Source of the DNA: a bacterium
GTDB taxonomy: Bacteria > Fidelibacterota > UBA8477 > JABMPR01
Direction: 5' to 3'
Assembly: GCA_013202895.1 (NCBI GenBank)
Contig: JABMPR010000099.1
Span: forward strand, 1 to 49,011
DNA length: 49,011 nucleotides
The notes beneath the pieces are model-generated. The model was not told the origin of the DNA and ran no database searches. It worked only from the letters and a program-made list of their open reading frames with translations. Numbering within the stretch: position 1 is the stretch's first letter; every line of letters starts with the position of its first letter. Position numbers and translations under genes: made by a program. Positions 55 to 48,580 of the stretch are shown here, piece by piece.

Positions 55-483
55 TTGGACCGTCTGCATAACTATTTTCGCTCCGTGAAATATTTAAAGC
101 TAATAATTGGTATCACAGCTATCGTCTCCATGACTTTCGCAGGGGCAACCCTCAGTGGTTTTTCCGGATACGAAGAAGACGCCCGCATCATCATCCAATG
201 GAATACAATCACGGAAGACCAGGTCGCAGGATTTGAATTACAGCGTAGTACTGATGGACGCACCTTCCTTGAGATCGGCTTTCTACATGCCCAGGGCGAA
301 GGCAGTGGTTATACCTTTATTGATGATTCCATCATCGCAAAGGTTTCAGGGCGAGAATATTTCTATCGATTAAAAATCCGTGACATCAATGGTGACTCAG
401 AATTGACTGAAATGATTAGCATCCAAACCAATATCTCCAGTGTGAATCATACCTGGGGTTCTCTGAAAGCACTTTTTAAATAA
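55..483 (+). CDS. Small secreted protein with a single Fn3-like domain
   Basis: Protein of 142 residues. A TTG start is assumed; an internal ATG further on would cut into the hydrophobic stretch. Residues 13-30 form a signal-peptide-like core (YLKLIIGITAIVSMTFAG). The rest resembles the immunoglobulin/Fn3-like domain common in FCB exported proteins: an IQWNT strand, then GFELQRSTDGRTF, then YFYRLKIRDINGDSE. Such domains normally sit just before a C-terminal sorting domain in much larger proteins; here the domain stands alone and the chain ends in a basic tail, SLKALFK. The function is unknown. A simple structural or binding role at the cell surface is an inference. The gene appears monocistronic, with a terminator 28 bases after the stop. 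Confidence 0.7.
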   Translation: MDRLHNYFRSVKYLKLIIGITAIVSMTFAGATLSGFSGYEEDARIIIQWNTITEDQVAGFELQRSTDGRTFLEIGFLHAQGEGSGYTFIDDSIIAKVSGREYFYRLKIRDINGDSELTEMISIQTNISSVNHTWGSLKALFK

Positions 484-3788: not shown

Positions 3789-3816
3789 TATTGGGATTAT
3801 TTCCTGAATCCCAATA
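3789..3816 (-). promoter_or_regulatory. Intercistronic hairpin spanning a stop codon
   Basis: A perfect 10-base-pair inverted repeat (TATTGGGATT/AATCCCAATA, loop of 8) covers the last codons and stop of the EEP gene and the start of the 72-base gap before the GH31 gene. No T-run follows, so it is more likely a 3' stabilising or attenuating structure than a full terminator. Confidence 0.5.
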
Positions 3817-25013: not shown

Positions 25014-25925
25014 CTAGTTTTTTCGCAGAGTAAAGTCATCAATCAACGAATCCCCCAAAGTGTAAGCCCTAAGGTTTAAGCTGGAATCTGTGATGCTAAT
25101 CTTGCAGTAATGGTGATCCCTATCAAACGCGCGAGCCAAAGTGGAATCATAGTAATCCTGGTTATGTATATCTTTTTCTATTCCATATGGGGGAGCTCCA
25201 GCTCCACCTGAAATCACCTGAACTATCCCATTTTCATCATCCCGCACACAGCTTAAATCTGACTCCAAGGGGCGCAAGGGATAGGATCGGGCATAATGGT
25301 GGGCATGTCCATTAATCACAAGATCAACGCCATATTCATAAAGTAAGGGCCACCAATCGCTCAGGCTTTCCTTATCAACCCGCTTACTCCCATAGGGAAA
25401 GCTAGGGTAATGCCAGCCAACAATGAGCCATTTACGTGTATTCTGCTTTAGCCATGAGCGCAATGAGTCATTCTGGGTAGTATCATTTCGAGTAGTACTG
25501 TTGAGAATGATAATTCGTACATCCTCAATATCCTCATAATAGTACTCGCCATTACCAGGCAGCCAGGGTAGAAAATGGTGCCAATTATCATATACCGCAT
25601 CATCAGTGCCCCGGTCATGGTTGCCAAAAGCAGCCAGATATTTTGATCTCAATTCAGGTGTTTGGATAAGTGGTTGCGATATATCAATAAATTTTTTCCA
25701 ATCACTTGTTTTAGATCCCTTAGCGACTAAATCCCCGGTATTTATAACAGCATCATAATTTTCACTGGCAATGATATTTACAATGCTATCGTGAACACTG
25801 TGTCCAGACCTGGTATCGCCAAGAACAAAGATATTTACCTGTGAGAGACCAGGAATTGTTAATGCCAGGCCTAAAAACAGGACCAGGTATATCGATTTTA
25901 GATTCATTTTGTGGTATGTATTCAA
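25014..25925 (-). CDS. Secreted calcineurin-like metallophosphoesterase
   Basis: Protein of 303 residues. A TTG start at 25925 has GGGGA seven bases upstream; the ATG at 25907 lacks a site. The signal peptide ends GLS|Q. Dimetal ligands are all present: LGDTRSGH (Asp37), NTGDLVAKG (Asp65), FGNHDRG (Asn102-His103), VGWHYPSF and INGHAHHY. The family includes phosphodiesterases, nucleotidases and purple acid-type phosphatases. Its gene follows the ENPP-type phosphodiesterase gene by 17 bases, so the pair may act sequentially, the first releasing nucleoside monophosphates and the second removing phosphate; this order is an inference. Confidence 0.9.
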   Translation of the reverse strand: MNTYHKMNLKSIYLVLFLGLALTIPGLSQVNIFVLGDTRSGHSVHDSIVNIIASENYDAVINTGDLVAKGSKTSDWKKFIDISQPLIQTPELRSKYLAAFGNHDRGTDDAVYDNWHHFLPWLPGNGEYYYEDIEDVRIIILNSTTRNDTTQNDSLRSWLKQNTRKWLIVGWHYPSFPYGSKRVDKESLSDWWPLLYEYGVDLVINGHAHHYARSYPLRPLESDLSCVRDDENGIVQVISGGAGAPPYGIEKDIHNQDYYDSTLARAFDRDHHYCKISITDSSLNLRAYTLGDSLIDDFTLRKN

Positions 25926-34246: not shown

Positions 34247-35077
34247 TTAATAACTCCAATAAAGTGTAACAAAATGACGAAGACCTAAACGGTGGTCAAT
34301 TTGGTAAATGCCATATCCTAAGGAAAAACTGTTCCAGGCACTGGTGAATCCAGCTGAAGGGTGGATTCTTACAGAGGGGTCAGCCATCTCAATCTGTAGT
34401 CCCCCCAGGAACTCAAAACCTTCTGTGAGTGGATAAGAAAGTCCTGAAGCAAGTGGAAAAGAACCATTGCTGACTTCAGTCAGTAGCGTGAGTGATCCAA
34501 ATTCAGCGTCCAATTCTCCCCATATCTCAGATGGTAATGTGGTGCTTTCCTCATCCAGTTTTCCAGTCACCCCAAAATGACGAAAGCCGCCACTGAGAAT
34601 AATGCTTTCATTTAATGCATATGCTGCAGCAAGATTGAGAGATAGGCCGGTTGCTGAAGTGTTCAAAGACCGCTCATAGATAAGCTCAGCGCCTAATCCA
34701 AGCGTAAATTGTTTGAATTGGTGAGCATAGGCTCCGCCGCTGTTGAATAAGGTATACTCAAATGTGCTAATGGGATCTTCACTGGGAATTTCATTTCGTA
34801 GTTCAAGTTCACCGCTATGCATGGCCTGCACGCTGAAATGAGCCTGTTTCATATCAATCCCTATATAAGCACCTTGAATATCCTCCACCCAATTCCACAC
34901 ACTCAATGTAACCTGGTGCTCTGGATGAGTAAGGATACGAGTGGGCTTCACTATTGGATTTAGACTAATCCCCAGGGCAGCATCACGGGTATCCGTAGGC
35001 GTATTCAAGATGTCAAAACTGCTTTGAGCCATACAGCTGCTGACGACTGCCAATATGATAAACGTTTGTCGGTACAT
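34247..35077 (-). CDS. PorQ-like outer-membrane beta-barrel protein
   Basis: The ATG at 35077 is preferred: it shares one base with the upstream stop (TAATG), as at 13827, and gives a clean signal peptide ending CMA|Q. The mature N terminus SSFDILNTPTDTRDAALGISLNP resembles the opening of PorQ-type barrels. Amphipathic beta strands run to the terminal aromatic motif TLYWSY. PorQ works with PorU, PorV and PorZ in processing and attaching T9SS cargo in Bacteroidota; the role of this divergent copy is inferred only. It is the last gene of the sprA operon. Confidence 0.75.
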   Translation of the reverse strand: MYRQTFIILAVVSSCMAQSSFDILNTPTDTRDAALGISLNPIVKPTRILTHPEHQVTLSVWNWVEDIQGAYIGIDMKQAHFSVQAMHSGELELRNEIPSEDPISTFEYTLFNSGGAYAHQFKQFTLGLGAELIYERSLNTSATGLSLNLAAAYALNESIILSGGFRHFGVTGKLDEESTTLPSEIWGELDAEFGSLTLLTEVSNGSFPLASGLSYPLTEGFEFLGGLQIEMADPSVRIHPSAGFTSAWNSFSLGYGIYQIDHRLGLRHFVTLYWSY

Positions 35078-36048
35078 TAGAAGATCACTCCCCATCCTAT
35101 ATAGTTTCGCAAACCTTCGCCTTTGACACCGGAGGTAATCCCCAGATCTATGTGCATTGCTGGACCCTGATTGATGGATAGCTCGTAGCGGGCACTAAAA
35201 CCTGGAATAATTATCTCATCTTCATAACTCATTCCTGTTTTCAATGATAGATTCTTTATACCATTCCACATAAGTGCTCCGCGAAAAATATCTGCTCCGA
35301 TGAAATAGTGGTCATGCTCCACAGCCACAGAAAACAGCTTTAGCTTTTCATGCCATCCCCAGGCCAGACTGACGGGAAACTCATCCTGGTAACTGCTGCC
35401 ACGTTCGAAAAGATCCTGGGTCTTCCATTTATAGCTGCTATTCCAATCTTTTACTGCCAGGGCAAAAGTGCTAGTGCTTCTGGGTTTAAAGAGTATGCCC
35501 AAACCAGCTCCAAAGCCGCTGGCTTTAAGATCTAGCCAGTCGTCGTCAGATGTAAACTTGCGGGTGAGAAGCTTTAGTGAGAGTCCAAATGCCAGTTTTT
35601 CTGAAAATCGATTGGAAAAGGACACGAGATAAGTCATCTCTGTATCGCTCATGTCACCTGCCTGATATCCTCGGGAATCGCGTGCCTCGATATTTTTGGT
35701 GCCTGCAGCGACAATTCCAACCCCCAGATAGGCTGTAGGTGGCAGGGGAGCGCCGGCATTTACTGAATAGATAAAACGATCAAGGGATAACTGAACCATG
35801 CCAGCATTAAAACTGCGATCATTAATAAAGGCATTGGAGGCTGGGTTTTGGGCATAGCTATTTGTGCTGCTGTTATGGAATAAGGTAATACCTCCAGTTC
35901 CGGCTGCCATTGGATCAGAAGTGAATCTTGAAACAGTCCCTGTAAACCCTCCCAAACCAGAGCCCAGAACACTCTGTACAAAGATCAGAAACACGCTGGC
36001 AAAGGTGCATATGGAAAGGTCATTTATTTTTTTAAGCACTAACTTCAA
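35077..36048 (-). CDS. PorV/PorQ-family outer-membrane protein
   Basis: The TTG at 36048 overlaps the upstream stop in TTGA and gives a short n-region (MKLVLKK) before a signal peptide ending VLG. Starting further upstream would place acidic residues before the signal and lengthen the overlap. The segment FTSDPMAAGTGGITLFHNSSTNSYAQNPASNAF is the PorV-like opening (normally AYNPAG). About 14 amphipathic strands follow, with final GWGVIF. PorV-like proteins dock on SprA to collect CTD cargo, so their presence in the sprA operon fits. Ser rather than Gln follows the cleavage site here. Confidence 0.82.
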   Translation of the reverse strand: MKLVLKKINDLSICTFASVFLIFVQSVLGSGLGGFTGTVSRFTSDPMAAGTGGITLFHNSSTNSYAQNPASNAFINDRSFNAGMVQLSLDRFIYSVNAGAPLPPTAYLGVGIVAAGTKNIEARDSRGYQAGDMSDTEMTYLVSFSNRFSEKLAFGLSLKLLTRKFTSDDDWLDLKASGFGAGLGILFKPRSTSTFALAVKDWNSSYKWKTQDLFERGSSYQDEFPVSLAWGWHEKLKLFSVAVEHDHYFIGADIFRGALMWNGIKNLSLKTGMSYEDEIIIPGFSARYELSINQGPAMHIDLGITSGVKGEGLRNYIGWGVIF

Positions 36049-37667
36049 TTGATCACCATCACTTTCGTCCAATGCATATCGTCACCCACTTCAATTCGAA
36101 TAAAATAAGTGCCATTTGCCACCAGATAACCACTCTCGTTTCGCCCATTCCAGGTTAGCTCCTGTGATCCTGCATATTGAGTAGGTGTAGCGTCCATTAC
36201 CGTGTTTACCCTGTGCATGGCAAAATCAAAAACAGTGATGGAGATCTCATCCCCTTGATCTGCAACAAAACGAATAATCAGATGACCCTGACCATTTAGA
36301 AGTTTATCATAACGAGGTGTAAATGGATTAGGATAGGCGTAGAAATCATCCCCCCCAACTGTACTTCGGGCTTTATGAATGTCCCACGAGAGTCCACCAT
36401 TATTGCTAACAGCCAGACCATCTCCAGTACCTACCCAGATTGCCCCATCATTGTTTATTAATACTGAATAGACGGCATCAGAGTAGATCACCTCCGAATA
36501 ATCTAAATTATGGTAATTTGGCAGTAATACAAAATTCAGTCCGTCTCTGGTTTTCCATAGACCCTCATCGGTGGCAGCGAATACGGCATTGGGTTCAGAT
36601 CCAATATTCCAGACGCGACTGCCCAACAGGGGTGCCCGCCAGTAACCAGTCTCACTATCATAAAAGCTGAAACCAGTTGCATCCCCGGCACCTGTGGTGA
36701 TCGTGGATGCCCAGATTCGCTCGGATCCATCATCCAAAGTTTGACGGTTTAATGCAATGACCCAATTACCTGAAATGTTAGAGTTTTGAAAAGTAAAATG
36801 CTCCCAGCTTTCACCTCCATCAAGAGATCTGTTAATCCCTCCAGATGTGCCAACCCAGATAGTATCGCTCCAGGCTTTTACGGCAAAAGCGATATGATTT
36901 AAGTGAATCAGTGGATCTAAAGCATAATAGGTAGCAGCAGCGGGTAAGTTGTCCTCATCCAATGAAATGGTATCAAGCTCAAGGGTGTCCAGCTGCAAAG
37001 AATGAATCATGACCGAATCAAGTACATCGAATTTATCCCAGGGCAACATCACTTTTTCCCAGGTGTCACCCAGATCTGAAGAGACTCTCAGTCCACCCCC
37101 AAAAGAGGTCGCCCACAGACGCTCCCCATCAAAAGCCAGATCATACGTGATATTTTGAACAGGTGTAACCACATCCACACTAAGGATAGTTACTCCCCAA
37201 AGATCTAGTTTTGAATATTTACCATAAGTAGTATCACCATCCATCACTGCTACCTGTAGTTCGTCCATGGGCTGACCCAAAAAAGTCCAGCTGGCTCCAC
37301 CATCAATTGAGCGACTAATGCCACCCCCGGCCTTGAGATCACCAAAGGCTGTGGTTGTATCGAAACCCATGGCAACCCACAGGGTATCGCCATAAACAAC
37401 CAGAGCTGAAACGCCACCTTGCCCGAGATCTGGATAACGAGAGCTGTAGCCAACAAACGATTCACCCCTGTCAAACGTGGCACTGAGCCCATGGCCAGAC
37501 CCCAGCCACAGGGTATCTCCAACACCTGCAATATCTGAGATACTACTACCGATAAGACCGCTATAAACAGAGTCAGCAGATTCGAGAGAGAATTGGGTAG
37601 GACGCAATAATTGCGCCTGAAGCGTCACGGACGTCAGGAGCAGGAGAAGTAGTTGGGTCTTTCTCAT
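36045..37667 (-). CDS. Beta-propeller surface protein with T9SS-like sorting domain
   Basis: Protein of 540 residues. The signal peptide ends LQA|Q. Repeated blades with BNR/sortilin-like character occur through residues 40-440: DTLWLGSGHGLSATFDRGESF, GGISRSIDGGASWTFLG, GGLRVSSDLGDTWEKV, GGINRSLDGGESWEHF, DGLAVSNNGGLSWDIH. The last 95 residues are an FlgD/Ig-like sorting domain: YAYPNPFTPRYD, ISITVFDFAMHRV, NGTYFIRIEV and final TKVMVIN. It is probably exported by the SprA system encoded upstream in the same operon. The start overlaps the previous stop as ATGA. Propellers of this kind often serve binding or scaffolding functions. Confidence 0.85.
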   Translation of the reverse strand: MRKTQLLLLLLTSVTLQAQLLRPTQFSLESADSVYSGLIGSSISDIAGVGDTLWLGSGHGLSATFDRGESFVGYSSRYPDLGQGGVSALVVYGDTLWVAMGFDTTTAFGDLKAGGGISRSIDGGASWTFLGQPMDELQVAVMDGDTTYGKYSKLDLWGVTILSVDVVTPVQNITYDLAFDGERLWATSFGGGLRVSSDLGDTWEKVMLPWDKFDVLDSVMIHSLQLDTLELDTISLDEDNLPAAATYYALDPLIHLNHIAFAVKAWSDTIWVGTSGGINRSLDGGESWEHFTFQNSNISGNWVIALNRQTLDDGSERIWASTITTGAGDATGFSFYDSETGYWRAPLLGSRVWNIGSEPNAVFAATDEGLWKTRDGLNFVLLPNYHNLDYSEVIYSDAVYSVLINNDGAIWVGTGDGLAVSNNGGLSWDIHKARSTVGGDDFYAYPNPFTPRYDKLLNGQGHLIIRFVADQGDEISITVFDFAMHRVNTVMDATPTQYAGSQELTWNGRNESGYLVANGTYFIRIEVGDDMHWTKVMVIN

Positions 37668-38545
37668 TGAAAGACTCTTGGCATTGGTGAAATTTGACTC
37701 GAGGCTTTCATGAGGGATCCGGGAACCGGAAGCACCACTGTTGAGTCTTCAATAGGTTCGGCATCAATTCCCAGCCAAGACCTTGCATTAAAGGTCCAGT
37801 AATAAGTTCCATCAAGTTGATTGCTCAGAAGCCCAAACTGTAAACTGTATATCCCATCACCTACAACTTCATCACCACTATAATAATCAGTATCACCATA
37901 GGTAAAAATCACTTTGCTGCCGCCATCATCATGAAGCGGAATGGGAATACTATCGTTGGCCCAAGACCCATCTGGTCTGAGAGTCCTCATGCTTACGTCT
38001 CGAATCTCATCAAATCCTTGGGAGTGACTGACAATTATTACCAATGTATCTAGCACCAGACTACCAGCTATTAGTTGGAGTGAATCAGGGCGGATGACCT
38101 CTAAAAGAATGGGTGGACTAGGTTTTATTGGTTGGAAAGATTCAATGTCAGATTTTAGTAAACCATTTGAGACCACCTGGACATTGAGGGTCCAGAGACT
38201 ATCAAATAAGGTAGAGTCTGGAAGGATCCAGTTTCCATCAAATGAATTGTCGTTTATCTGAATATCATCACCAATTCCTTCGTCATTCAAAACCAGCGAG
38301 GCCATCAGAGTCGAGCCTGCTTCAAGTCGGGCTGTTACTTCCAGACTAGGCTCAGGTGAGACACTGGCTACAGAAAAAAAGAATTCCTGGGCAAGGTAGT
38401 CAAATTGGAATGCGGTGATTTCAACATACAGCTCCAGATCCTCAACACCTTCCAGAAAAGGCTCCTCATCCAGAGTTGTCGGTGATTGATCACAACCCAG
38501 GAATAGCAGTAGAGACAGGGTAAATAGTATTATTTTACTTCGCAT
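37664..38545 (-). CDS. Lipoprotein of unknown function with Ig-like segments
   Basis: Numbered from the preferred ATG at 38545 (MRSKIILFTLS), which gives a standard lipoprotein signal with lipobox FLGC; an in-frame ATG at 38560 is also possible. The mature part has two predicted beta-sandwich segments, with LVLNDEGIGDDIQINDNSFDGNW resembling the macroglobulin-like domain found in FCB lipoproteins, and VSMRTLRPDGSWANDSIPI followed by GDEVVGDGIYSLQF. No enzymatic motif is seen. It overlaps prmA by 16 bases and the propeller gene by four (ATGA), so it likely belongs functionally with the propeller and PorV/PorQ-like proteins. Confidence 0.75.
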   Translation of the reverse strand: MRSKIILFTLSLLLFLGCDQSPTTLDEEPFLEGVEDLELYVEITAFQFDYLAQEFFFSVASVSPEPSLEVTARLEAGSTLMASLVLNDEGIGDDIQINDNSFDGNWILPDSTLFDSLWTLNVQVVSNGLLKSDIESFQPIKPSPPILLEVIRPDSLQLIAGSLVLDTLVIIVSHSQGFDEIRDVSMRTLRPDGSWANDSIPIPLHDDGGSKVIFTYGDTDYYSGDEVVGDGIYSLQFGLLSNQLDGTYYWTFNARSWLGIDAEPIEDSTVVLPVPGSLMKASSQISPMPRVFQ

Positions 38546-39378
38546 AAATAGGCGATCCATTCGTTTTTAGTATATGGTTTTAATATTTTCCAGGGTGAAT
38601 CCGCCAGCAATTCTCGTATTTCCTCATCCTCAGTTGCCAGAAGTCCAGAAACCAGCACTTTTCCGCCAGTTCTGACACAATCGAAATAACTGGGGAGCAG
38701 GGGAAATAGTCTGGCTTTGATAATATTAACAAGCATGAGATCATAGGGTGGGTTCAATTCAGGCGATTCCGTAATTTGCAGTCTAAATGCAGAATTAATT
38801 CCGTTCAACTTGAGATTATCCTGGATATTTTCTTCTGTAACCGGATCATTTTCAATAGCATCGATCCAGGCAGCTCCCAGATGCAAAGCGGTTATCCCAA
38901 GGATGCCGCTCCCCGTGCCCAGGTCCAACACCCGCTCATTACCTCTGATGCAAGTCTCTAACATCTCCAGGCAGAGTTGAGTCGTCTCGTGGGTACCCGT
39001 ACCAAAAGCCATTGCAGGTCGAATTCGAGTTTTTACCCGGTGAGAGTAATCTGTTGGAAGCTCCCATTCAGGGAGAATAATAAGCTCATCAGAAATTTGT
39101 GTTGGTTTAAAATATGCCTGCCAGTTTTTATTCCAGTTTTCTCGGTCAACCACATCCTCCGATATGCTGGAATCAGGATCAAGGTCTTTTAGGAACAGCT
39201 TGAGTTCATTAAGAACCAACTGAATATCATCATTCAGTGCATAACTAACCTGAAAAGTATCGTCTTTTTCAACAATGGCCAAACCACCCAGAGCCAGGGC
39301 AAAATCCATGGCGATTTCTGCGTGCTCTTCAGCCACGTGAATATCAGCTGAAACCCATTGTGAAACAGTGTCTATCAA
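38530..39378 (-). CDS. prmA: Ribosomal protein L11 methyltransferase
   Basis: The TTG at 39378 is chosen: it overlaps the ATPase stop in TTGA and has GGAGG nine bases upstream; the ATG at 39405 extends into the ATPase gene. An N-terminal substrate-recognition domain precedes the SAM-binding domain with PAMAFGTGTHETTQLCLEML, VLDLGTGSGILGI and LMLVNIIKARL; the ending NEWIAYLCEVK is typical of PrmA. It trimethylates lysines and the N terminus of ribosomal protein L11 in the cytoplasm. The product is a housekeeping enzyme placed among envelope genes, and it may simply have been captured by the operon. Confidence 0.93.
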   Translation of the reverse strand: MIDTVSQWVSADIHVAEEHAEIAMDFALALGGLAIVEKDDTFQVSYALNDDIQLVLNELKLFLKDLDPDSSISEDVVDRENWNKNWQAYFKPTQISDELIILPEWELPTDYSHRVKTRIRPAMAFGTGTHETTQLCLEMLETCIRGNERVLDLGTGSGILGITALHLGAAWIDAIENDPVTEENIQDNLKLNGINSAFRLQITESPELNPPYDLMLVNIIKARLFPLLPSYFDCVRTGGKVLVSGLLATEDEEIRELLADSPWKILKPYTKNEWIAYLCEVK

Positions 39379-40424
39379 GACAGACCACCTCCGTTTTGTA
39401 GCCATCTCAGAAATAGGGGATCGTAAATGTAATACCCTTCATCGCGGCTGATGAGCCATCCTTCGCGTAATAATTTTAATACCGTATTATGAGCAGTGCT
39501 GGTGGCGGACAATCCAAATTCCCTTATAAAGCTCAATTCAGTTGGATGGGAATTCCCCCTGGATAGACCAATTAACAGGCGCTTTTCGTTTAAACCGAAA
39601 TTATCCCAGTCAGATGCAAAGATAACATTGTGCTCTTTCAGCATTTTAATGATTGTGCGTTCCAGGAGCCGCGTCGTGTTACCCTCGAGCCAAAGTTGGG
39701 CCAGAGAATGAGCCACTTTTTGAGTCAATTGTGCTTGTCCATTTGTAAATTTAAGCACTGAATCAGCCAGGTCAAAATCACTGAGCCCCATGCGACGAAA
39801 ACGTTGTGTAAGAAAACGATTGAACGCAATCAAATCCAAATTATTAATAACAAGGTGCTCATGCCGGGAAAAGAAGGGATTCGAGTTATTATCAAGGATT
39901 TCGTGCATGATATCTTCTCGATGGCTAACAATCACGTGAGTGATTCCACGTCTATCGCGAAGATTTTCCCTTAATTCACCGATAATCCCATCCTTTAACT
40001 TGACCAGGTGCTGAAACTCATCCCAGGCAATGGTAAACTTTTGATTGCTTTGTTTGACAAGCTTATACCATAGATCAAATACTGGGCTTAGTGTGGTATC
40101 ATGGTCATTTTCACGCAGAAGTTTTGTCTGTCCAGACTCTTTTACCTCAGGGAATCCATTTTCCAGAGCCTCCAATAACAGGTTGGCAAGATCCGCTCTA
40201 CTGACCACGAAACTCAAATCTAAATAAATTGAAGCAGATGGGCTTCTCCTGAGAACGTATTTGAGTAAACTGGTCTTTCCAGTTCCTCGATAACCGCTAA
40301 TAATCAGGTGCAGCTGTTTTTCAAGTGCTGCAGCAATAAACTCCTGCTCTTCAGTTCGTTGAAGGTAATGAGCTCCCCGGCTGGGTTCTCCCCAGAAGAA
40401 TGGGTTGGCGTAGATCTTACTCAT
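39375..40424 (-). CDS. AAA-type ATPase with C-terminal winged-helix domain
   Basis: Protein of 349 residues. Walker A is SGYRGTGKTSLL (residues 43-54), Walker B is TIAWDEFQ, and an arginine-containing sensor-like segment follows (VIVSHREDI). The C-terminal 90 residues (LIGLSRGNSHPTELSFIREFGLSATSTAHNTVLKLLREGWLISRDEGYYIYDPLFLRWL) form a winged helix of the kind seen in Orc/Cdc6-like and prokaryotic archaeal-type ATPases (Pfam family ATPase_2). It probably binds DNA or acts as a switch protein. No partner is obvious. It sits between the glutaminyl cyclase (27-base gap) and prmA (TTGA overlap). Confidence 0.82.
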   Translation of the reverse strand: MSKIYANPFFWGEPSRGAHYLQRTEEQEFIAAALEKQLHLIISGYRGTGKTSLLKYVLRRSPSASIYLDLSFVVSRADLANLLLEALENGFPEVKESGQTKLLRENDHDTTLSPVFDLWYKLVKQSNQKFTIAWDEFQHLVKLKDGIIGELRENLRDRRGITHVIVSHREDIMHEILDNNSNPFFSRHEHLVINNLDLIAFNRFLTQRFRRMGLSDFDLADSVLKFTNGQAQLTQKVAHSLAQLWLEGNTTRLLERTIIKMLKEHNVIFASDWDNFGLNEKRLLIGLSRGNSHPTELSFIREFGLSATSTAHNTVLKLLREGWLISRDEGYYIYDPLFLRWLQNGGGLS

Positions 40425-40451: not shown

Positions 40452-41357
40452 TCATTGTTGGTACAACCAGCTTAACAACGTGTTACCAACAGCATCAAGA
40501 CTTTCTGGACTACAGTGATCCGGTGTGTCATCATGTGTGTGCCAGTATTTGTTATCGGCTCCAGGATATTCAAAATCTATGATATCAATTGCGGGAATCC
40601 CTTTTTCAATGAATGGTACATGATCGTCGTACATGGAACTGCCTACCTGCAACTGGAACTGGTCATAGCCTATCTCAGCGCCAAGTAGCCAAATCTCTTC
40701 TATCAATCGTGGGGCTGAACGGTAAGATACTGGATCAACCTTGATTGTCAGTTCAGCATCCCCAACCATATCCAGAAGGATGACCTGTTGGGCTAGCGGT
40801 GGATAGGGATGATTCACATAATAACGGCTTCCCAGCAGGTAATATTGCAGATCACCGGACTTCCCATAATCCTCCCCGTCAAACAGGATTATATCGATTC
40901 CAGGATTGACAGGCGCATTCTGCAGTTGCCTTGCGATTTCCAATAGAACAGCGACACCACTGGCACCATCATTCGCTCCAATCATCGCTTTATTGGGAAA
41001 GTATTCATCATATTCAGCCCGTGGTCTGGTATCCCAGTGGGCACACAGAATGATGCGTTGAGTTTTCTCTGGCTGAAAGCGGGCGATAACATTAGTTAGC
41101 TTCAATTGTCTATCACCATATGGATCATCCTGTAAAAAATTCTGTAGATGAAACTCATCAGCCAGTGGCTCCAGGGTATCCCGGTAGAATTTCAGGGCTG
41201 CTTCGGCTCCCTTGGAATTTGGTTCTCGCGGACCAAAATCACATTGTGCAACCAGATCCTCGAAAGCACGCTCGGAATCAAAATCCGTTTGAGCTGCCAC
41301 AGGCGACAGCCAACACGAGCTGATCGATAGCATGAGTATTATTTTAATGATATTCAT
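40452..41357 (-). CDS. Glutaminyl-peptide cyclotransferase (M28-type)
   Basis: Protein of 301 residues with a signal peptide ending VAA|Q. It matches the M28 fold of glutaminyl cyclases: CAHWDTRP (His107, Asp109), GANDGASGVAVLLE (zinc Asp130), ILFDGEDYG (Glu162), LLDMVGD, and PAIDIIDFEYP followed by YWHTHDDTPDHCSPESL, in which Trp-His-Thr is the cyclase-type zinc histidine block. These enzymes convert N-terminal Gln to pyroglutamate in the periplasm. The single-zinc residue set (Asp, Glu, His) fits cyclase rather than a two-zinc aminopeptidase. It lies ten bases after sprA in the same operon. Substrates are likely the Gln-initiated mature exported proteins encoded here. Confidence 0.9.
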   Translation of the reverse strand: MNIIKIILMLSISSCWLSPVAAQTDFDSERAFEDLVAQCDFGPREPNSKGAEAALKFYRDTLEPLADEFHLQNFLQDDPYGDRQLKLTNVIARFQPEKTQRIILCAHWDTRPRAEYDEYFPNKAMIGANDGASGVAVLLEIARQLQNAPVNPGIDIILFDGEDYGKSGDLQYYLLGSRYYVNHPYPPLAQQVILLDMVGDAELTIKVDPVSYRSAPRLIEEIWLLGAEIGYDQFQLQVGSSMYDDHVPFIEKGIPAIDIIDFEYPGADNKYWHTHDDTPDHCSPESLDAVGNTLLSWLYQQ

Positions 41358-41366
41358 AAGCCAGCC

Positions 41367-44300
41367 TTACCCCTTAATCTGGATGTTTACACCAAATTGA
41401 AAATCTCCAATTTTCTGTTGGCCTGTTGTTCTCGTATTCGTGATGCGGTATTCATATGAAATGTTTCCAGAGACCTTATCAGTAAAACTATACTGAATCG
41501 TGGGGCGAGCGGAAACAGATTCGGAATAGGTGCCATCACCAAATTCAATGCCTTCTCCACTTTCATTGCCTATGAAATTCTGTTCATTGGTATAAGCAAT
41601 CTCCATTCGAAAATCGATATTATTTTCAAGATATTTATCTTCCATCATCGGTAGGGGGATATTCATGCCGCCACGGTGAGAGTATGAGACACTGGCGTTT
41701 AAAGATTGATTGGATGTCTGATTTGAAGTGATCAATTCAGCCACACTGATGGAGTTTCTAATGTTTTTTGTCAGGCTATAGTTCAGAGAGCCATTTATAT
41801 TCTTTTTCCCCTGAATGCTGAGTCCGATAAGCGGCGAGAAGGACACTGAATATGTTTCCCCCGTTATAATTCCCTTTTCCTGGTTCACATTCTTTTTGCC
41901 GGTGTAATTCATGTCCAGGCTGGCTCCGGTAATAAATTTTTTCAGCCACTCTATCTCCTTTAAACCTGAATACCGTAAATTAAAAGAGGGGAATGGAAAC
42001 CCGGTAGCACCAAAGGAGCGCGTTTCATTTTTTGGGACACCGAGAAGTCGGCCACTGGGTAGATAGTCGATTTTTGTTTTGACCACCTCACCCTGACTTT
42101 TATTTGCCAGACTGTTGTTTAGCCCCAGATTAAAGGTCAATTTTGAGGTCAGGTTTTTAGTGAGCTTTATTCCGGACCGCAGGGTCAAATTTATGTCATC
42201 TGCTGTAGCTCTGGGATTCGTGGCATCTGGATGATTCAAAAACAAGCTGTCCAAAAATAGCCCGGTTCGATATCCGTAGCCCACATCACTTATTTCCATT
42301 TCCCTAGCCACCAGTACCAATGAATCAGGTATGCCGGTCGTGTCTCCAGCGCTGGTTACCCACATGGAGTCCAGAGAAGCGATTTGACGCAGGTTGTTCG
42401 TGCGCCTGCCCTGTGTGACACTCATGGAAATCGGATCAATCCGGTCCAGCGTTTTATAAGTGAAATCCAGTATGTCTGACAAACTCAATCCTGTTGTGGA
42501 ATCTTCCGCTTCCTCTTTTGAGGAAGTTTCAGATGCATCCTCTGATTTCTCTGCTTCCTTTGCTCTGCCACGACCCCTTGCAGGTTGTCCAGCCTTTTGT
42601 TTACTGCCTGAGCCTTTATCATCTTTTGGCTTATGGATAAAACCAAATATCTCTGAGACTGTCATGGACATGTTTGCGGTGGTGTTGGCACTGACGTTGA
42701 GATCCAAACCAGGTTGATCAACATTTATTTTGTCAGTAGCCGAAAAACTGGAGGAGTAGGAAAATGAGGGAGAGAACAGCTTCAGAACTTTGGGATTCCA
42801 ACTCAAGCTATATGTTTCTCTGTAGTTTCCCAAATGTCCAAAGTCTGCCTTTTTAATGATATCCTGTTTTCGATTTTTTAAACTGTCCAAATTGTTGGCC
42901 ATGGTTGCGTTAAATTTTGCGGATACTGTGCTTATCGGGCTCCAATCAATATTGAAACGGCGGCTCATTGAAAGTTTGTGTGTAGGTTTCAACGGGATTG
43001 AATTCGGATTGCGGAATACGCTGGAAGATTTGTCCTCAACCATAGAAGCATCAAAGCCTATATTACTGGGTAAGAAACCAATTTCTGTGTTTGCCATGGC
43101 CTCCCCCACAAGCGGTATGGATTCCATAAAAGCAAAGGGTGCCACAGTGAAATCTTTACCCAAATTTATTTTGTAGGAAAAACTTCCATCGGTTTTCTCA
43201 GATTTCTGCTCCTTTTTTTGAGCGTTTGATGCCAGACTGTTTGTTCCACCAACCTTAAAATTAAAGTTATCGATGGTATATTTCGGTAGCCAATGTTCAG
43301 ATTTCACCTTTTTTGAAAGCGAAGCATTCCAACTGTTCGATTCACTCCGATTAGTCATCGTCTCCAGGGTATCCTGGAGTGATTCATCCAGATCAGCGAT
43401 CCGGATATCACTACCAGTTATGTATTTGGGTTGCTTTTTACTTTGGCGATGAGCGAGGGATATGGGAATATTAAGACCCCAACTGTCCGGCAGCAGTTTA
43501 TGGGCTGAGAAATTCCCGCTAATATTTGCTGCGACAGAGTTATCTCCACTACCAAATTGCTGTTGAACATTATGAAAATCTGCGTCATCCTTCTGGATAT
43601 CCATACTGATACTAACCAGGTCGGCAAACTTCATGCTGAGATTAGCACGGTAGGCAGTTGCGCTATTTTTTTCAACATCACTGACACGGAGTTCGTCAAG
43701 CCAGATTTCTCCTGTCATGGGTAGATCAGAAAGATTGGTGAGTCCCGTTTTGAGGATCTTCACGCGGGAGAGTGAGGGCTTGCCCTTAATGGCGATTGAA
43801 CTACCATCTTCAAAATCTCTAGTGGCGTATTTGAAATCTGTAGGTAAATCAGCCCAATATAAGGTGTCATTGTAGCTGCTGTCCAATCCTTCACCAATCT
43901 CAACTGCCTGCTGTATAATAAATACTGAATCTTCCAGCGATAATTTGAAATTGGCCAGATCTGCCATGTTCACTTCAAGGTGATTGCGTTCATCCCAACC
44001 TGGGAAAATAGGCTTTCTGATTTCATAATAATTATCGTCAGTTTCACCAAAGCGAAAGAAAAACTGAAGCATGGATTCGTTTTCCACGACATAGGGCGTG
44101 AAGGCTGATTCATAGCTGCTGCCACGTGTTTCATCCCAACCATGAACGAACATCTTCATTGTTTTATAATGGATCAAGTCCTTGGCTTTTGAACTCCGGA
44201 AAAGCTTTTCTGCCACCACAGAATGCCCATCTGACAGATTGTCGGCACGTATAACCAGAGATTGTTCTTTTGAGCGCAATTGAGTGATTGGATCCAGGAC

Positions 44301-47300
44301 ACCGCTAACGCCAGCCGGTGGAGCTGAATAAGTACCTGGAGCATTAGCATTATAGCGACTGGGATTATCTTCAGTGTTTATAACTGTGACATTCAAGGTC
44401 CCATGAGCCGTATCGGGAACCGGTACCTCAAATCCTTCATATTCTGAAAACACGCCCCGTTCCTGCCAGTCGTTTCCAACGATATCTACCGTGGCAATCT
44501 GCAGGGTGGTTAAACCAGCTGGTAATTCATCCATCCAAAGTCTGGCAAATTTAACCTGCGACCAAAGTGCCAGACCTGGGGCTCCTGCTTCTTCAAACTT
44601 TGCCAGGGGGACCCGGATTAGCTTCCAGCCCGTCTCCGTATTATTGCTGAACCTGGTCCTGCCTACGATATATTCATGGGTATCGTCCGTAAGATCAACA
44701 TCTGCTGTAAAGTAGGCATTTCGTGTATCCAGGGCACCATCATTGTTTAAATCTTCTGTGTTGGGATAGGTTCCGCCTTCGATTTGAAGGTTGCCTTCTG
44801 TTCCATTAATATGACGGTAGCTAATAGGCTGGGAGTTTGGGTCAAATTCATAGCGATCCCAGGAGGGGTGATGATACCCATATAGTGCAATATTTTCAGG
44901 GGTGGTGTAGGGTAGACCATCAATTCCCAGATCCTCTTCTTCAACCACAAAACCATCTCCAGATGGAAATACTTGAGATGGAATATCTTCTGTATCTGGC
45001 TTGCTCCCATAACCTTTCGAAACATTCTCATCCAGGATAGTTACATCCCATTCCTGACCAACTTCCTGCAGATCTTCAGATATATATCCAAGATCTATAT
45101 GCAATCTACCCAGATCACCTTTGACCCATAATTCCAGAAACTTAGATTCACTTTGGTCATAGTAACCGGAGGAGAGAGAGCGCATGATACCACCCCAGGA
45201 TTCTGCTGGAGCCATACTGGAGTCACGTACGGCAAAGGACGAATCCGGGATCACATTCAGAACCAGGATGTCAGTAACATCGTTTTGGGCTTGGGCACTG
45301 GTCTCTTTGTTGGGCCAGATCTGTTTTGTGAGAATGCGATTATAGGGATTGTACCAATAAGTAAATGCCCGTTCTTTGTTGCCTCGAGCTGTTCCATCCG
45401 CCGGAATAGAGGCTGTTTTCCAGGCACCCCGAATAATACTCAATTGTGCTTCACGCCGACTGCCCTCAAAATCATCCAGATAGGCAACCCCAAAATCCCC
45501 CAATTCCTCGTTGACCGCCGTATTGGGATTGGGGATAACCTGGGCAATTTCACCGCTGACTGTAATATTTGATTGCGCATCAGTCTTAATGACAGGCAAC
45601 CAGTCCAACCCTCGAGTCAACCAGGGCAGATCCTTGGTGATTTTGGTGTTAAGATCCCAGATAAAATTTTCCATAGGTTCCTTCCCAACTCGAACCTTTT
45701 CATCGATACTGCTTTTGGAAAAATAAATGGCACTTAATCCGATAAATGAATTCTTGTTATCACCAAACTTCATTTCTGCCCGCGAACCAAGAATTACTTT
45801 CTTATCGAGTTGGAAGAACTCGTTTAATTCATATTTAATTTCCAGATTGGCGCCAGGTGCCAGAGCCGATTCATTCAGGATGATCAGTTGACCCGTGAAA
45901 TAGTCAATGGTGTAATCCTTAGATGCTCCTCTTTCCAGGGGTACATTATTTAAGGTGATTTCTTCTGAACCTTCGATCACATTAAAACCCAGATTAAAGG
46001 TGGAACTCTTATTAGAATAGGTCACATACATGCGAAATTTACTATCCTTGTTATAATCGGAAGTTCCGGGAGCATTATCATAAAATGAATTAGACTGATA
46101 TTCAGGGTAGGCTACCAGGTTTGGATTTCCCCCATTACCCAGGGGCTGCCCTGCGGAGTTAGTCATCCATATATCCTGCCCGGCAACAGCAGTATCAGCA
46201 CGAAATGGATAGAGAAATGGAAAGATTAGCTCACCCCGATATAAATTTAAAATATTCTCATAATCCAAATCCATTATACCATCTGGATCAGGATCAGTAT
46301 CTACGCCTTTGCGATCCAGATCAAATAATTGTAAAAAAGGAGTTCCATCGTCAGCCAATTCTGATTCTTCACCCCCAATCGATCTACGAATCTTCAGATC
46401 AAAACCATCCTTGGTGATGGACGTGGTCTTCAGGTAAAAAACGTTTTTCCATTCCAGATCCCAGGATGGCTGACCAGGCAGGGCATCATCAGGTTTAATC
46501 ATCTTTAATATTAATGTATCTGCGGTTCCCGGGGTTCCCAGAGCGATATTATTTCCCTCTTGATATTGATACATCGGGCTAAATTCAGGGTCATATTCTG
46601 GAACCATAAGATTGGACTGATCCATGTTAGCCGTATTGATAAAGGTGTCCTTATATGCAATAGCCAGTACTTCATTGCTTTGAACAGGCGTATTCATCCG
46701 CAGAACACCCAGGTCTTCATATAACACAAAGTCTTCATCAGGACCCTGTTTCAATTGGATGACTTGCCTGCTTGTTACTGGTTCAGTATCGGTATTGGGA
46801 TAGTCATATATCTTTGCAAAATTGGTAATCTCATCTTCCTGATTATAGCTTGTGTATTTGTAAACCCTGATGTTTTCAACCGAGCGTCCTGTAAGACGGT
46901 ATTGCCCCTGATCGTTAAGCGGGTATGAATTGCGACGATAAAAATGATTGATATAGAAGTAAACGTTGCTGCTACGAGCGTAGTCATCAATTGTTGTTTC
47001 AGAAGATTCTGAATCCCCATTCAAGCTGAGTTTCTCTTTACGACCACGTTCCAGTGAGGCGATGGCTGTTACGTCGACCGGACCAATCTTAGCCAGGGCT
47101 TTCAATCCAAATAAACCATTATTCTGGCCTGAGAACATCGCCAGCCTGGTCCCAGGAAGGCTAAGAGAAATATTTCCGGCCTCAACTCGCTGAATTATTT
47201 CATCTTCGTTACCGTTGTAATAGATTTCCATATTGTTTTCAAAATCAAAATCACGTTCACTATCCTGATCCACCTGGATACTAATACGATCACCAATTTT

Positions 47301-47933
47301 CCCTTCAATTTTAAAAGCTTGTTTCTGTTCAATCTGGAAGGTGTTTGACTGATTCTGGTTGTTAACATTGGTCGTTTTGCTACGATCCTCGCTTCTTATT
47401 TTACCTGTGATGCTTACATTTCCCCGCACTCGTAAAGAGACCCGCTGTCCGGCAATATCAGCCCCGATCAGCTCAAATGATTGGGAGCCATCCGAATCCT
47501 CCTCCGCAGTCAGACGACCTGTAGCAATCTTTTTAAAGAGGTTCTTTTTCTTATAATCCAGGTTTAAACGCACATATTCATCAATTAGAATTACAGTTGG
47601 TATTCCAATGGGCTTTCCATCCATCATTTGAGCCAGGGTGAAATAGGTGGCAGTGCTATCCATTTGAAGTGTGTTTCTTACCGAGCCTATTTTTAACTCA
47701 CTCATGGGTGATGCCAGAAATAGGCTGGTGTCGCTGAAAAACAAACCCCTCTTGGTCTGGTCAAATAATGGAGTTGAATTTAGCTGGTAGAAATCAGCAT
47801 TAATTAAGAAGCCCACACCTGGTGAACGTAACTCCTCTGTTTGACCAAATAGGGGTGGCCAAAGAGTAAAAAGGGATAATATGAGTGCTGCAATCGTTCT
47901 CACGTTGGTTGTTTTAGACCCGGATGTATCCAT
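41367..47933 (-). CDS. sprA: T9SS outer-membrane translocon SprA
   Basis: Protein of 2188 residues, close to family length. The signal peptide ends LFG|Q (Gln31). Characteristic segments include DFYQLNSTPLFDQTKRGLFFSDTSLF, GKIGDRISIQVDQDSERDFDFENNMEIYYNGNEDEIIQRVEAGNISLSLPG, LDDFEGSRREAQLSI, DNLSDGHSVVAEKLFRSSKAKD, GEIWLDELRVSD and SMSRRFNIDWSPIS. In Bacteroidota SprA forms a giant single-chain beta barrel that exports folded CTD-bearing proteins and docks PorV. Around residues 1765-1817 there is a long charged low-complexity insert. No ribosome binding site is evident. It follows rdgB by 35 bases. Confidence 0.95.
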   Translation of the reverse strand: MDTSGSKTTNVRTIAALILSLFTLWPPLFGQTEELRSPGVGFLINADFYQLNSTPLFDQTKRGLFFSDTSLFLASPMSELKIGSVRNTLQMDSTATYFTLAQMMDGKPIGIPTVILIDEYVRLNLDYKKKNLFKKIATGRLTAEEDSDGSQSFELIGADIAGQRVSLRVRGNVSITGKIRSEDRSKTTNVNNQNQSNTFQIEQKQAFKIEGKIGDRISIQVDQDSERDFDFENNMEIYYNGNEDEIIQRVEAGNISLSLPGTRLAMFSGQNNGLFGLKALAKIGPVDVTAIASLERGRKEKLSLNGDSESSETTIDDYARSSNVYFYINHFYRRNSYPLNDQGQYRLTGRSVENIRVYKYTSYNQEDEITNFAKIYDYPNTDTEPVTSRQVIQLKQGPDEDFVLYEDLGVLRMNTPVQSNEVLAIAYKDTFINTANMDQSNLMVPEYDPEFSPMYQYQEGNNIALGTPGTADTLILKMIKPDDALPGQPSWDLEWKNVFYLKTTSITKDGFDLKIRRSIGGEESELADDGTPFLQLFDLDRKGVDTDPDPDGIMDLDYENILNLYRGELIFPFLYPFRADTAVAGQDIWMTNSAGQPLGNGGNPNLVAYPEYQSNSFYDNAPGTSDYNKDSKFRMYVTYSNKSSTFNLGFNVIEGSEEITLNNVPLERGASKDYTIDYFTGQLIILNESALAPGANLEIKYELNEFFQLDKKVILGSRAEMKFGDNKNSFIGLSAIYFSKSSIDEKVRVGKEPMENFIWDLNTKITKDLPWLTRGLDWLPVIKTDAQSNITVSGEIAQVIPNPNTAVNEELGDFGVAYLDDFEGSRREAQLSIIRGAWKTASIPADGTARGNKERAFTYWYNPYNRILTKQIWPNKETSAQAQNDVTDILVLNVIPDSSFAVRDSSMAPAESWGGIMRSLSSGYYDQSESKFLELWVKGDLGRLHIDLGYISEDLQEVGQEWDVTILDENVSKGYGSKPDTEDIPSQVFPSGDGFVVEEEDLGIDGLPYTTPENIALYGYHHPSWDRYEFDPNSQPISYRHINGTEGNLQIEGGTYPNTEDLNNDGALDTRNAYFTADVDLTDDTHEYIVGRTRFSNNTETGWKLIRVPLAKFEEAGAPGLALWSQVKFARLWMDELPAGLTTLQIATVDIVGNDWQERGVFSEYEGFEVPVPDTAHGTLNVTVINTEDNPSRYNANAPGTYSAPPAGVSGVLDPITQLRSKEQSLVIRADNLSDGHSVVAEKLFRSSKAKDLIHYKTMKMFVHGWDETRGSSYESAFTPYVVENESMLQFFFRFGETDDNYYEIRKPIFPGWDERNHLEVNMADLANFKLSLEDSVFIIQQAVEIGEGLDSSYNDTLYWADLPTDFKYATRDFEDGSSIAIKGKPSLSRVKILKTGLTNLSDLPMTGEIWLDELRVSDVEKNSATAYRANLSMKFADLVSISMDIQKDDADFHNVQQQFGSGDNSVAANISGNFSAHKLLPDSWGLNIPISLAHRQSKKQPKYITGSDIRIADLDESLQDTLETMTNRSESNSWNASLSKKVKSEHWLPKYTIDNFNFKVGGTNSLASNAQKKEQKSEKTDGSFSYKINLGKDFTVAPFAFMESIPLVGEAMANTEIGFLPSNIGFDASMVEDKSSSVFRNPNSIPLKPTHKLSMSRRFNIDWSPISTVSAKFNATMANNLDSLKNRKQDIIKKADFGHLGNYRETYSLSWNPKVLKLFSPSFSYSSSFSATDKINVDQPGLDLNVSANTTANMSMTVSEIFGFIHKPKDDKGSGSKQKAGQPARGRGRAKEAEKSEDASETSSKEEAEDSTTGLSLSDILDFTYKTLDRIDPISMSVTQGRRTNNLRQIASLDSMWVTSAGDTTGIPDSLVLVAREMEISDVGYGYRTGLFLDSLFLNHPDATNPRATADDINLTLRSGIKLTKNLTSKLTFNLGLNNSLANKSQGEVVKTKIDYLPSGRLLGVPKNETRSFGATGFPFPSFNLRYSGLKEIEWLKKFITGASLDMNYTGKKNVNQEKGIITGETYSVSFSPLIGLSIQGKKNINGSLNYSLTKNIRNSISVAELITSNQTSNQSLNASVSYSHRGGMNIPLPMMEDKYLENNIDFRMEIAYTNEQNFIGNESGEGIEFGDGTYSESVSARPTIQYSFTDKVSGNISYEYRITNTRTTGQQKIGDFQFGVNIQIKG
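42480..42640 (-). other. Charged low-complexity insert within SprA
   Basis: This stretch encodes about 53 residues dominated by Lys, Arg, Gly, Ser and Glu (KDDKGSGSKQKAG, ARGRGRAKEAEKSEDASE, SSKEEAEDS). It interrupts barrel-type sequence and is probably a flexible periplasmic or surface loop. Confidence 0.7.
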
Positions 47934-47968: not shown

Positions 47969-48580
47969 TTAAGGCAGCTCCAATTTAAAAGCCTGGTGCG
48001 TTTGATTCAAATTTTTTAAAAGTTTCTCAAAAGCCAGTTTACGGTGACTCAATTGATTCTTTTCTTCTAGACTCATTTGGGCATACGTTTTTTGCTTCTC
48101 TGGAAGGTAGAAAATGGGATCATATCCAAACCCAGATTCGCCCTGCCTGCTGGTGGTAATGAAACCGGGTACTTCCCCCAGTGCCGAAACAGTAGCCTCA
48201 CCATCATAAAAGACAGCCATTGTTTGAAATTGGGCTTGTCTTTTATCCTGAGGGACGCCATCTAATTCCGTCAGAATCTTCTGAACATTTTGATCATAGC
48301 TTACATTTTCACCGGCATAGCGAGCTGCATAGACACCTGGTGCCCCATCAAGGGCATCTACTGATAGACCCGTATCATCTGCAATGGTGGGCAAGCCGCA
48401 ATGCTGGTATCCAGCCTTGGCTTTGATGGTAGCGTTCGCTTCCAGTGTATCACCATCTTCGACGATTTCTGCTAGCTCTGGGTAATCAAGGAGTGTCACT
48501 ACATCAAGTGAATATGGTTCAAGGAGTCGAGTCAATTCTTCAACCTTGTGTTTATTTTGTGTGGCTAGCAATAATTTCAT
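47969..48580 (-). CDS. rdgB: dITP/XTP pyrophosphatase (RdgB/HAM1 family)
   Basis: Protein of 203 residues. TQNKHKVEEL at the N terminus, LEANATIKAKAGY, ADDTGLSVDALDGAPGVYAARYAG, GFGYDPIFYLPEKQKTYAQMSLEEKNQLSHRKLAFEKL are all standard for the family. It hydrolyses dITP, ITP and XTP to monophosphates, cleaning the nucleotide pool. It is cytoplasmic and contributes to genome stability. The neighbour 35 bases downstream on the same strand is sprA; rdgB is probably the first gene of that operon or of a promoter serving it. Confidence 0.95.
   Translation of the reverse strand: MKLLLATQNKHKVEELTRLLEPYSLDVVTLLDYPELAEIVEDGDTLEANATIKAKAGYQHCGLPTIADDTGLSVDALDGAPGVYAARYAGENVSYDQNVQKILTELDGVPQDKRQAQFQTMAVFYDGEATVSALGEVPGFITTSRQGESGFGYDPIFYLPEKQKTYAQMSLEEKNQLSHRKLAFEKLLKNLNQTHQAFKLELP

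What the first reader, a model, noticed from the sequence alone, without database searches (positions are those of the whole stretch)
40452..41357. Glutaminyl cyclase in the sprA operon matched by a Gln-at-+1 rule on exported proteins
Seen directly: ten predicted signal-peptidase I substrates in the window place Gln right after the predicted cleavage site (genes at 3797, 11017, 13827, 16282, 18552, 25014, 34247, 36045, 40452 and sprA itself); exceptions are the GH31, the PorV-like protein at 35077-36048 and the Fn3-like protein at 55. Known: many Bacteroidota signal-peptidase I substrates show this pattern and are capped as pyroglutamate by a periplasmic cyclase. Inference: the cyclase ten bases downstream of sprA services the T9SS and outer-membrane proteome in this lineage, linking N-terminal capping with type IX export in one operon.
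Basis: partly seen in the sequence, partly recalled or inferred. Interest (0 to 1): 0.75.

Follow-up and report, generated by a model that had tools for sequence, protein, structure and literature searches.

The report
N-terminal capping enzyme in secretion operon
A non-Bacteroidota bacterium carries, in a gene cluster for type IX secretion, an enzyme that probably seals the first amino acid (glutamine) of many exported proteins; the same gene pair recurs throughout its phylum, so an export rule described as exclusive to Bacteroidetes seems to exist elsewhere too.

Summary
[quoted passage not shown] A caller blind to +1 finds the excess in the window (OR 9.9), elsewhere in the genome (9.6) and in the genus (5.1), as strong as in Tannerella forsythia (9.3) and absent in E. 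coli (0.9). The M28 protein is a bacteroidal-type type II glutaminyl cyclase (QC) by active site, tree and predicted fold; aminopeptidases branch apart. The phylum is not Bacteroidota (245 held genomes; probably Fidelibacterota/Marinimicrobia). QC lies directly downstream of sprA in 92 of 98 scorable genomes, the other six being split between contigs. The median gap is 7 bases, with overlaps in one family, inside a cluster with PorZ-, PorV- and PorQ-like genes. None of 46 Bacteroidota genomes has QC next to sprA. The T9SS-specific inference is only partly supported: cargo is no more Gln-first than other proteins (11/23 vs 24/64, p=0.46), the rule is weaker in other families with the same operon, and one genome deleted QC, keeps sprA and still has Gln at 8/28 receptor starts. 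Best reading: general capping of Sec/SPI products by a QC co-expressed with the T9SS. This extends the Q-rule to a second phylum; cyclisation itself is untested.

The parts
40452..41357 (-). glutaminyl cyclase (type II, M28 fold), 301 aa; predicted soluble periplasmic protein
   Evidence: Pfam PF04389; PDB sequence hits 6qro, 6qql, 7cje glutamine cyclotransferases E<1e-46; tree 100/100 with Bacteroidota QCs; Foldseek best hits are Bacteroidota QCs
41292..41357 (-). signal peptide of QC (residues 1-22), cut before Gln23 (codon 41289-41291)
   Evidence: A|Q invariant in 23/23 QC orthologs of families f1 and f2, leader otherwise variable
41367..47933 (-). sprA, T9SS outer-membrane translocon; predicted cut LFG|Q31
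   Evidence: TIGR04189 753.5 bits, cut-off 200; 9-base gap to QC
47969..48580 (-). Ham1/RdgB-family pyrophosphatase, upstream neighbour conserved in G036
   Evidence: PF01725; 46% identical orthologue at the same place in L057
39375..40424 (-). AAA-type ATPase inserted between QC and prmA; seen only in the window's genus
   Evidence: PF01637/PF13401; present in the genus loci that reach this far, absent from loci of f2, g2, f6
38530..39405 (-). prmA, ribosomal protein L11 methyltransferase; conserved downstream neighbour
   Evidence: PF06325; downstream of QC in most relatives
37664..38560 (-). predicted lipoprotein of the cluster
   Evidence: LFLGC lipobox; homologues downstream of prmA in f2/g2, weak match in G036
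36045..37667 (-). PorZ-like beta-propeller protein with C-terminal sorting-type domain; LQA|Q
   Evidence: FlgD_ig PF13860, BNR, partial T9SS_PorZ match below cut-off; 35% blastp / 39% aligned identity to its G036 orthologue in the same cluster
35077..36048 (-). PorV-family outer-membrane protein (Ser at +1, exception)
   Evidence: NF033709 E=2.3e-12, below cut-off
34247..35080 (-). PorQ-like outer-membrane protein; CMA|Q
   Evidence: NF033711 E=2.1e-6, below cut-off; homologue in the G036 cluster
3797..5347 (-). Exo_endo_phos-domain exported protein, LCA|Q
   Evidence: PF03372; leader
11017..13827 (+). TonB-dependent receptor, VLG|Q
   Evidence: PF13715 and PF07715; leader
13827..14843 (+). 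PorV-family protein, SWG|Q
   Evidence: NF033709 160.6 bits over cut-off 90
16282..18456 (+). exported protein, C terminus resembles a sorting domain, LVA|Q
   Evidence: leader and C terminus
18552..21224 (+). T9SS type A cargo, VLG|Q
   Evidence: TIGR04183 40.4 bits over cut-off 23
25014..25925 (-). periplasmic calcineurin-like phosphoesterase, GLS|Q; not T9SS cargo
   Evidence: PF00149
1103..3724 (-). GH31 glycosidase, exception (Met at +1)
   Evidence: PF01055; leader
55..483 (+). small exported protein, exception (Thr at +1)
   Evidence: leader

Best explanation
The gene at 40452-41357 encodes a periplasmic type II glutaminyl cyclase. It converts the N-terminal Gln that signal peptidase I exposes on roughly half of the exported proteins of this lineage (its own, SprA, TonB receptors, Por-like barrels, T9SS cargo and ordinary periplasmic enzymes) into pyroglutamate, shielding them from aminopeptidases. 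The gene is translationally coupled to sprA inside an old T9SS cluster (sprA-qc-prmA-lipoprotein-porZ-like-porV/porQ-like). The cap is therefore produced together with the machinery that fills the outer membrane and surface, but it acts on Sec/SPI products in general and is not a T9SS sorting signal. Shown here: family, active site, predicted fold, Gln excess, gene coupling (by gap and overlap), breadth of substrates. Inferred: catalysis, cyclisation in vivo, the protective role, the reason for co-expression.
For: QC identity: PDB sequence hits; Zn ligands D130, D163, H273, catalytic E162 and D196, and W272 invariant with Bacteroidota QCs; 100/100 clade with T. forsythia QC, apart from 13 M28 peptidases; AlphaFold model pLDDT 79.8, best Foldseek hits the Parabacteroides, Tannerella, Bacteroides and Porphyromonas QC structures. 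Gln at +1. QC follows the rule itself, A|Q in 23/23 orthologs. Linkage: sprA next to QC in 30/30 first loci and 92/98 genomes, the rest on separate contigs; median gap 7 bases, 4-base overlaps in f6; same order Ham1-sprA-QC-prmA-lipoprotein-PorZ-like-PorQ-like in G036. Substrates not limited to cargo. Half of genome G194 (no QC, no SprA) shows no Gln excess (5/132 vs 37/1279, OR 1.3), while G090, equally AT-rich (33% vs 31% GC), shows it (11/44, OR 10.5).
Against: Two pocket residues of Bacteroidales QCs differ (PgTrp193 is Tyr173; PgPhe294 is Asp268), and PMC5837995 warns that active-site conservation alone does not prove QC activity in this superfamily. Gln fraction is about half, below the 71% Bacteroidetes mean. 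G231 deleted QC between sprA and prmA, yet 8/28 of its receptor N termini still start with Gln. In f25 genomes with QC a strict caller finds Gln at only 5/29, so the G194 contrast may partly reflect family. The signal-peptide caller is home-made, and most of the genome was not read.
Confidence: 0.82

Rival explanations
1. The QC-sprA linkage is operon inertia: an ancestral gene order kept by chance or by shared need for expression, with no functional tie between capping and type IX export. (This rivals the meaning of the linkage, not the QC identity, so its probability overlaps with the best explanation.)
For: prmA, unrelated to export, is equally conserved in the operon; G231 lost QC without losing sprA or prmA; Gln at +1 is not specific to cargo; none of 46 Bacteroidota genomes with both genes has them adjacent.
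Against: Near-zero gaps and start-stop overlaps kept over QC identities down to about 40-45% and SprA identities down to 25%, with PorZ- and PorQ-like genes following, look maintained.
Confidence: 0.45
2. QC is functionally tied to the T9SS: SprA or other translocon parts need a pyroglutamate N terminus, so QC is made in step with SprA.
For: Tight coupling and cluster; SprA starts with Gln in the window and in G036, but with Ala in G231, which has no QC.
Against: Only three SprA N termini of this phylum were read; non-T9SS proteins carry Gln as often; PMC5837995 reports no effect on sorting for most tested P. gingivalis proteins.
Confidence: 0.2
3. The M28 protein is an aminopeptidase that trims exported proteins, and Gln at +1 is unrelated.
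For: Same fold and ligand set as M28 aminopeptidases; two QC pocket residues changed.
Against: Starred 100/100 split from the lineage's own M28 peptidases, one of which matches solved aminopeptidases instead; Asp as third zinc ligand and Trp before the His as in bacteroidal QCs; best folds are QCs.
Confidence: 0.05
4. Gln at +1 reflects only signal-peptidase preference or base composition; cyclisation is spontaneous or absent.
For: G231 without QC keeps partial Gln at +1.
Against: Excess is confined to the position after permissible cuts and absent in mature segments of the same proteins, in E. coli, and in QC-less G194 at matched GC; QC is in 91/94 high-quality genomes.
Confidence: 0.1

Closest known systems
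Bacteroidetes Q-rule pathway (PgQC, PG_2157; PMC5837995, PMC10653852)
   Same: Type II QC with bacteroidal Asp zinc ligand; Gln exposed at +1 of many SPI substrates irrespective of destination; T9SS organism.
   Different: Different phylum, although the rule is published as exclusive to Bacteroidetes; QC here is an SPI substrate with its own Gln at +1, not a lipoprotein; QC is coupled to sprA, whereas PgQC heads an operon with a Fe-S protein gene and hemG; the rule is weaker here (about half).
Characterised bacteroidal QCs TfQC/PgQC (6qro, 6qql; PMC7948796)
   Same: About 35-40% identity, catalytic and zinc residues, predicted fold.
   Different: Trp193 and Phe294 equivalents replaced by Tyr and Asp; no lipid anchor.
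Type IX secretion system (SprA/Sov, PorV, PorQ, PorZ, CTD cargo)
   Same: SprA over the curated cut-off, CTD cargo and a PorV-family protein present in the window.
   Different: PorZ- and PorQ-like proteins fall below the curated cut-offs; QC inside the cluster is not described in the papers found.

Membership tests
Type II (bacteroidal) glutaminyl cyclase | Single-zinc ligands Asp, Asp, His (PgAsp149, Asp183, His299) | tested here: met
   D130, D163, H273 invariant in the alignment
Type II (bacteroidal) glutaminyl cyclase | Catalytic Glu and Asp (HsGlu201, HsAsp248) | tested here: met
   E162 and D196 invariant
Type II (bacteroidal) glutaminyl cyclase | Trp before the zinc His (PgTrp298), Tyr in aminopeptidases | tested here: met
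   W272 invariant
Type II (bacteroidal) glutaminyl cyclase | Pocket Trp193 and Phe294 | tested here: not met
   Tyr173 and Asp268 in the window; other members of this phylum and one Bacteroidota MAG also vary. Phe294 is described as shared by type II QCs, Trp193 by bacteroidal QCs (PMC7948796); neither binds zinc, but this lowers certainty on substrate, so 'QC' is claimed on clade, fold and catalytic set.
Type II (bacteroidal) glutaminyl cyclase | Groups with proven QCs, not with M28 aminopeptidases | tested here: met
   100/100 clade with TfQC; Foldseek
Type II (bacteroidal) glutaminyl cyclase | Cyclises N-terminal Gln | not testable with these tools
   needs an enzyme assay
Q-rule organism | Large excess of Gln at +1 of SPI substrates | tested here: met
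   OR 9.8 own genome sample, 5.1 genus, comparable to T. forsythia 9.3 and unlike E. coli 0.9
Q-rule organism | Gln in more than 48% of predicted SPI substrates (Bacteroidetes range in PMC5837995) | tested here: inconclusive
   10/13 by eye in the window; blind caller 10/23 own, 6/13 in T. forsythia, so the caller underestimates
Q-rule organism | Pyroglutamate N termini by mass spectrometry | not testable with these tools
   no proteome held
T9SS | SprA/Sov translocon | tested here: met
   TIGR04189 753.5 bits
T9SS | C-terminal sorting domain cargo | tested here: met
   TIGR04183 and PF18962 on 18552-21224
T9SS | PorZ and PorQ by curated model | tested here: not met
   partial matches below cut-off; called 'like' only

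The most novel reading that the evidence does not exclude
In a phylum outside Bacteroidota, N-terminal pyroglutamate capping and type IX secretion are one co-translated module: QC is made from the sprA message because SprA and its partners need the cap, so the long-noted co-occurrence of T9SS and the Q-rule reflects a mechanistic tie.
Probability: 0.2. Interest if true: 0.75.

Novelty: new variant of a known kind. Interest (0 to 1): 0.58.

Why it matters
The Q-rule is stated in print as exclusive to Bacteroidetes (PMC10653852) and its co-occurrence with T9SS was noted but dismissed (PMC5837995). A second phylum with the rule, natural QC losses, and a QC physically coupled to sprA gives independent evolutionary replicates for asking why exported proteins are capped and whether type IX export depends on it. 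If G036 is Fidelibacter multiformis IA91, a cultured strain is available.

Tried and rejected
A first signal-peptide caller let in many transmembrane proteins and gave only 0.17-0.27 Gln in T. forsythia, so it was discarded; an EM-fitted cleavage model worked only for some groups and crashed on masked residues. The permissible-site test with an internal mature-region control was kept because both controls behave. Gln at +1 of the 676-1077 ORF was rejected as a signal peptide: it is a DUF4326 protein whose true start is probably downstream. The idea that QC loss abolishes the rule was weakened by G231. The missing QC of G108, G186 and G212 is a contig-end effect. Naming the phylum by a public-collection scan gave only Bacteroidota (the query there was the window QC joined to T. 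forsythia QC, to reach both lineages in one scan).

Full report
What is in the window. The protein at 40452-41357 (minus strand) is an M28-fold protein of 301 residues. Its closest solved relatives by sequence are glutamine cyclotransferases of Bacteroidota (6qro, 6qql, 7cje; E below 1e-46), with human QC at 4e-18 and aminopeptidase YwaD far behind at 9e-13. It lies 9 bases downstream of sprA (TIGR04189, 753.5 bits).

The Gln-at-+1 observation. For a fair test I wrote a caller that ignores +1, takes every permissible cut (small residue at -1, small or aliphatic at -3) 2-10 residues after the hydrophobic core, and compares the share followed by Gln with the same motif inside the mature part of the same proteins. 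Own genome 18/83 versus 17/618 (OR 9.8, p=3e-9), of which window 8/32 and rest of genome 10/51; three other genomes of the genus 19/120 versus 33/933 (OR 5.1, p=9e-7). Positive control T. forsythia 12/61 versus 12/468 (OR 9.3); negative control E. coli K-12 6/109 versus 46/796 (OR 0.9). The blind best-site caller gives Gln at 10/23 in the own genome, 6/13 in T. forsythia and 2/34 in E. coli. By eye about half of SPI-like proteins outside the window start with Gln, against a Bacteroidetes mean of 71% in PMC5837995, so the rule is real but somewhat weaker here.

Is it a glutaminyl cyclase? PMC7948796 lists what separates bacteroidal QCs from aminopeptidases. The window protein has the Asp-Asp-His zinc set (D130, D163, H273), the catalytic Glu and Asp (E162, D196) and Trp272; it lacks the equivalents of Trp193 and Phe294 (Tyr173, Asp268). 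A tree of 17 QC-type and 13 other M28 proteins, including two further M28 proteins of the same genome, puts it with the Bacteroidota QCs at 100/100. One of those other M28 proteins, tested against solved structures, matches aminopeptidases instead. A predicted structure (pLDDT 79.8) has the Parabacteroides, Tannerella, Bacteroides and Porphyromonas QCs as its best matches. QC activity itself is inferred; PMC5837995 warns that active-site conservation alone is not proof.

Where the protein sits. In families f1 and f2 the QC itself is an SPI substrate: A|Q is invariant in 23/23 orthologs while the leader varies. In f6 it has a leader without Gln, and in f3, f9 and f30 it looks like a lipoprotein, as PgQC is.

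Linkage to sprA. QC is in 222/245 genomes of the phylum and in 91/94 of high quality; SprA is in 233/245 and 94/94. In 98 genomes with both genes in the listed rows, 92 have QC directly downstream on the same strand; in the other six the two hits lie on different contigs. The gap between stop and start has a median of 7 bases, with 4-base overlaps in f6 and 1-base gaps in f9. In G036 the order Ham1-sprA-QC-prmA-lipoprotein-PorZ-like-PorQ-like matches the window, which adds an ATPase and a PorV-like gene. In a sample of 148 Bacteroidota genomes, 46 have this kind of QC; all 46 have SprA and none has the two adjacent, the nearest being 12.6 kb apart.

Which phylum? The T. forsythia genome and 147 Bacteroidota genomes are disjoint from the 245 genomes of the window's phylum, so it is not Bacteroidota. 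G036 is one contig of 2,788,509 bases with about 45.9% GC in the sample. The complete genome of Fidelibacter multiformis IA91 is 2.79 Mb with 45.6% GC (PMC11652737), so the phylum is probably Fidelibacterota (Marinimicrobia, SAR406). This is inference; no named record of the lineage was found.

Does QC serve the T9SS? In the own genome and genus, proteins ending in a recognisable sorting domain (scored by eye on C-terminal sequence) have Gln in 11/23 cases and all others in 24/64 (p=0.46). Gln-first proteins include a TonB receptor, a phosphoesterase and outer-membrane barrels. This agrees with PMC5837995, where pyroglutamate is not a sorting signal. The data therefore favour general capping.

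Natural losses. G194 (no QC, no SprA, no M28 protein at all) has no Gln excess over 790 kb (5/132 versus 37/1279), against 57/333 pooled over the QC-positive members sampled (p=6e-5); G090, of similar GC, has a strong excess. But f25 genomes with QC show Gln at only 5/29 receptor starts by a strict caller, so part of the G194 contrast may be family-wide. G231 is a clean QC deletion, prmA following sprA directly; its SprA starts with Ala, yet 8/28 receptor starts keep Gln. Recent loss, another cyclase or spontaneous cyclisation could explain this; a search for type I QC was not possible.

Novelty. The Q-rule, type II QC and T9SS are known. New here, as far as the searches of held papers show, are the Gln excess in a second phylum with T9SS and a phylum-wide coupled sprA-QC pair in a T9SS-like cluster. 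PMC10653852 calls the rule exclusive to Bacteroidetes, although PMC5837995 already lists Ignavibacterium album at 77% and a few Chlorobi outliers. Limits: home-made signal-peptide caller, 6% of the own genome read, related genomes not independent, no wet evidence.

Noticed in passing
G231:C86, L161: QC is cleanly missing between sprA and prmA in a 94%-complete genome; a natural QC-negative, SprA-positive strain.
   Followed up: partly
window 39375-40424: An AAA ATPase gene sits between QC and prmA in the window's genus and is absent there in other families; its role is unknown.
   Followed up: no
G195:C9:2506-9399: One genome of family f25 carries a SprA scoring 2361 bits against TIGR04189, several times higher than the rest of the phylum (about 600) and like Bacteroidota; transfer or contamination.
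   Followed up: no
Bacteroidota sample (G377, G321, G286, G283, G342, G338, G310, G369): QC and sprA are not adjacent but lie within 12-66 kb in 8 of 46 genomes, which looks more than chance and might be a trace of old linkage.
   Followed up: no
G036 (2,788,509 bp): Size and GC match Fidelibacter multiformis IA91, the cultured member of Fidelibacterota; it carries the overlapping sprA-QC pair but only a weak Gln rule (OR 3.3).
   Followed up: partly
G231, L212-L241: In the QC-less genome Gly is as common as Gln at +1 of receptors (8 each of 28), a possible alternative +1 preference.
   Followed up: no
window 676-1077: DUF4326 protein whose longest ORF mimics a leader ending AVNS|Q; probably a misplaced start.
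   Followed up: yes
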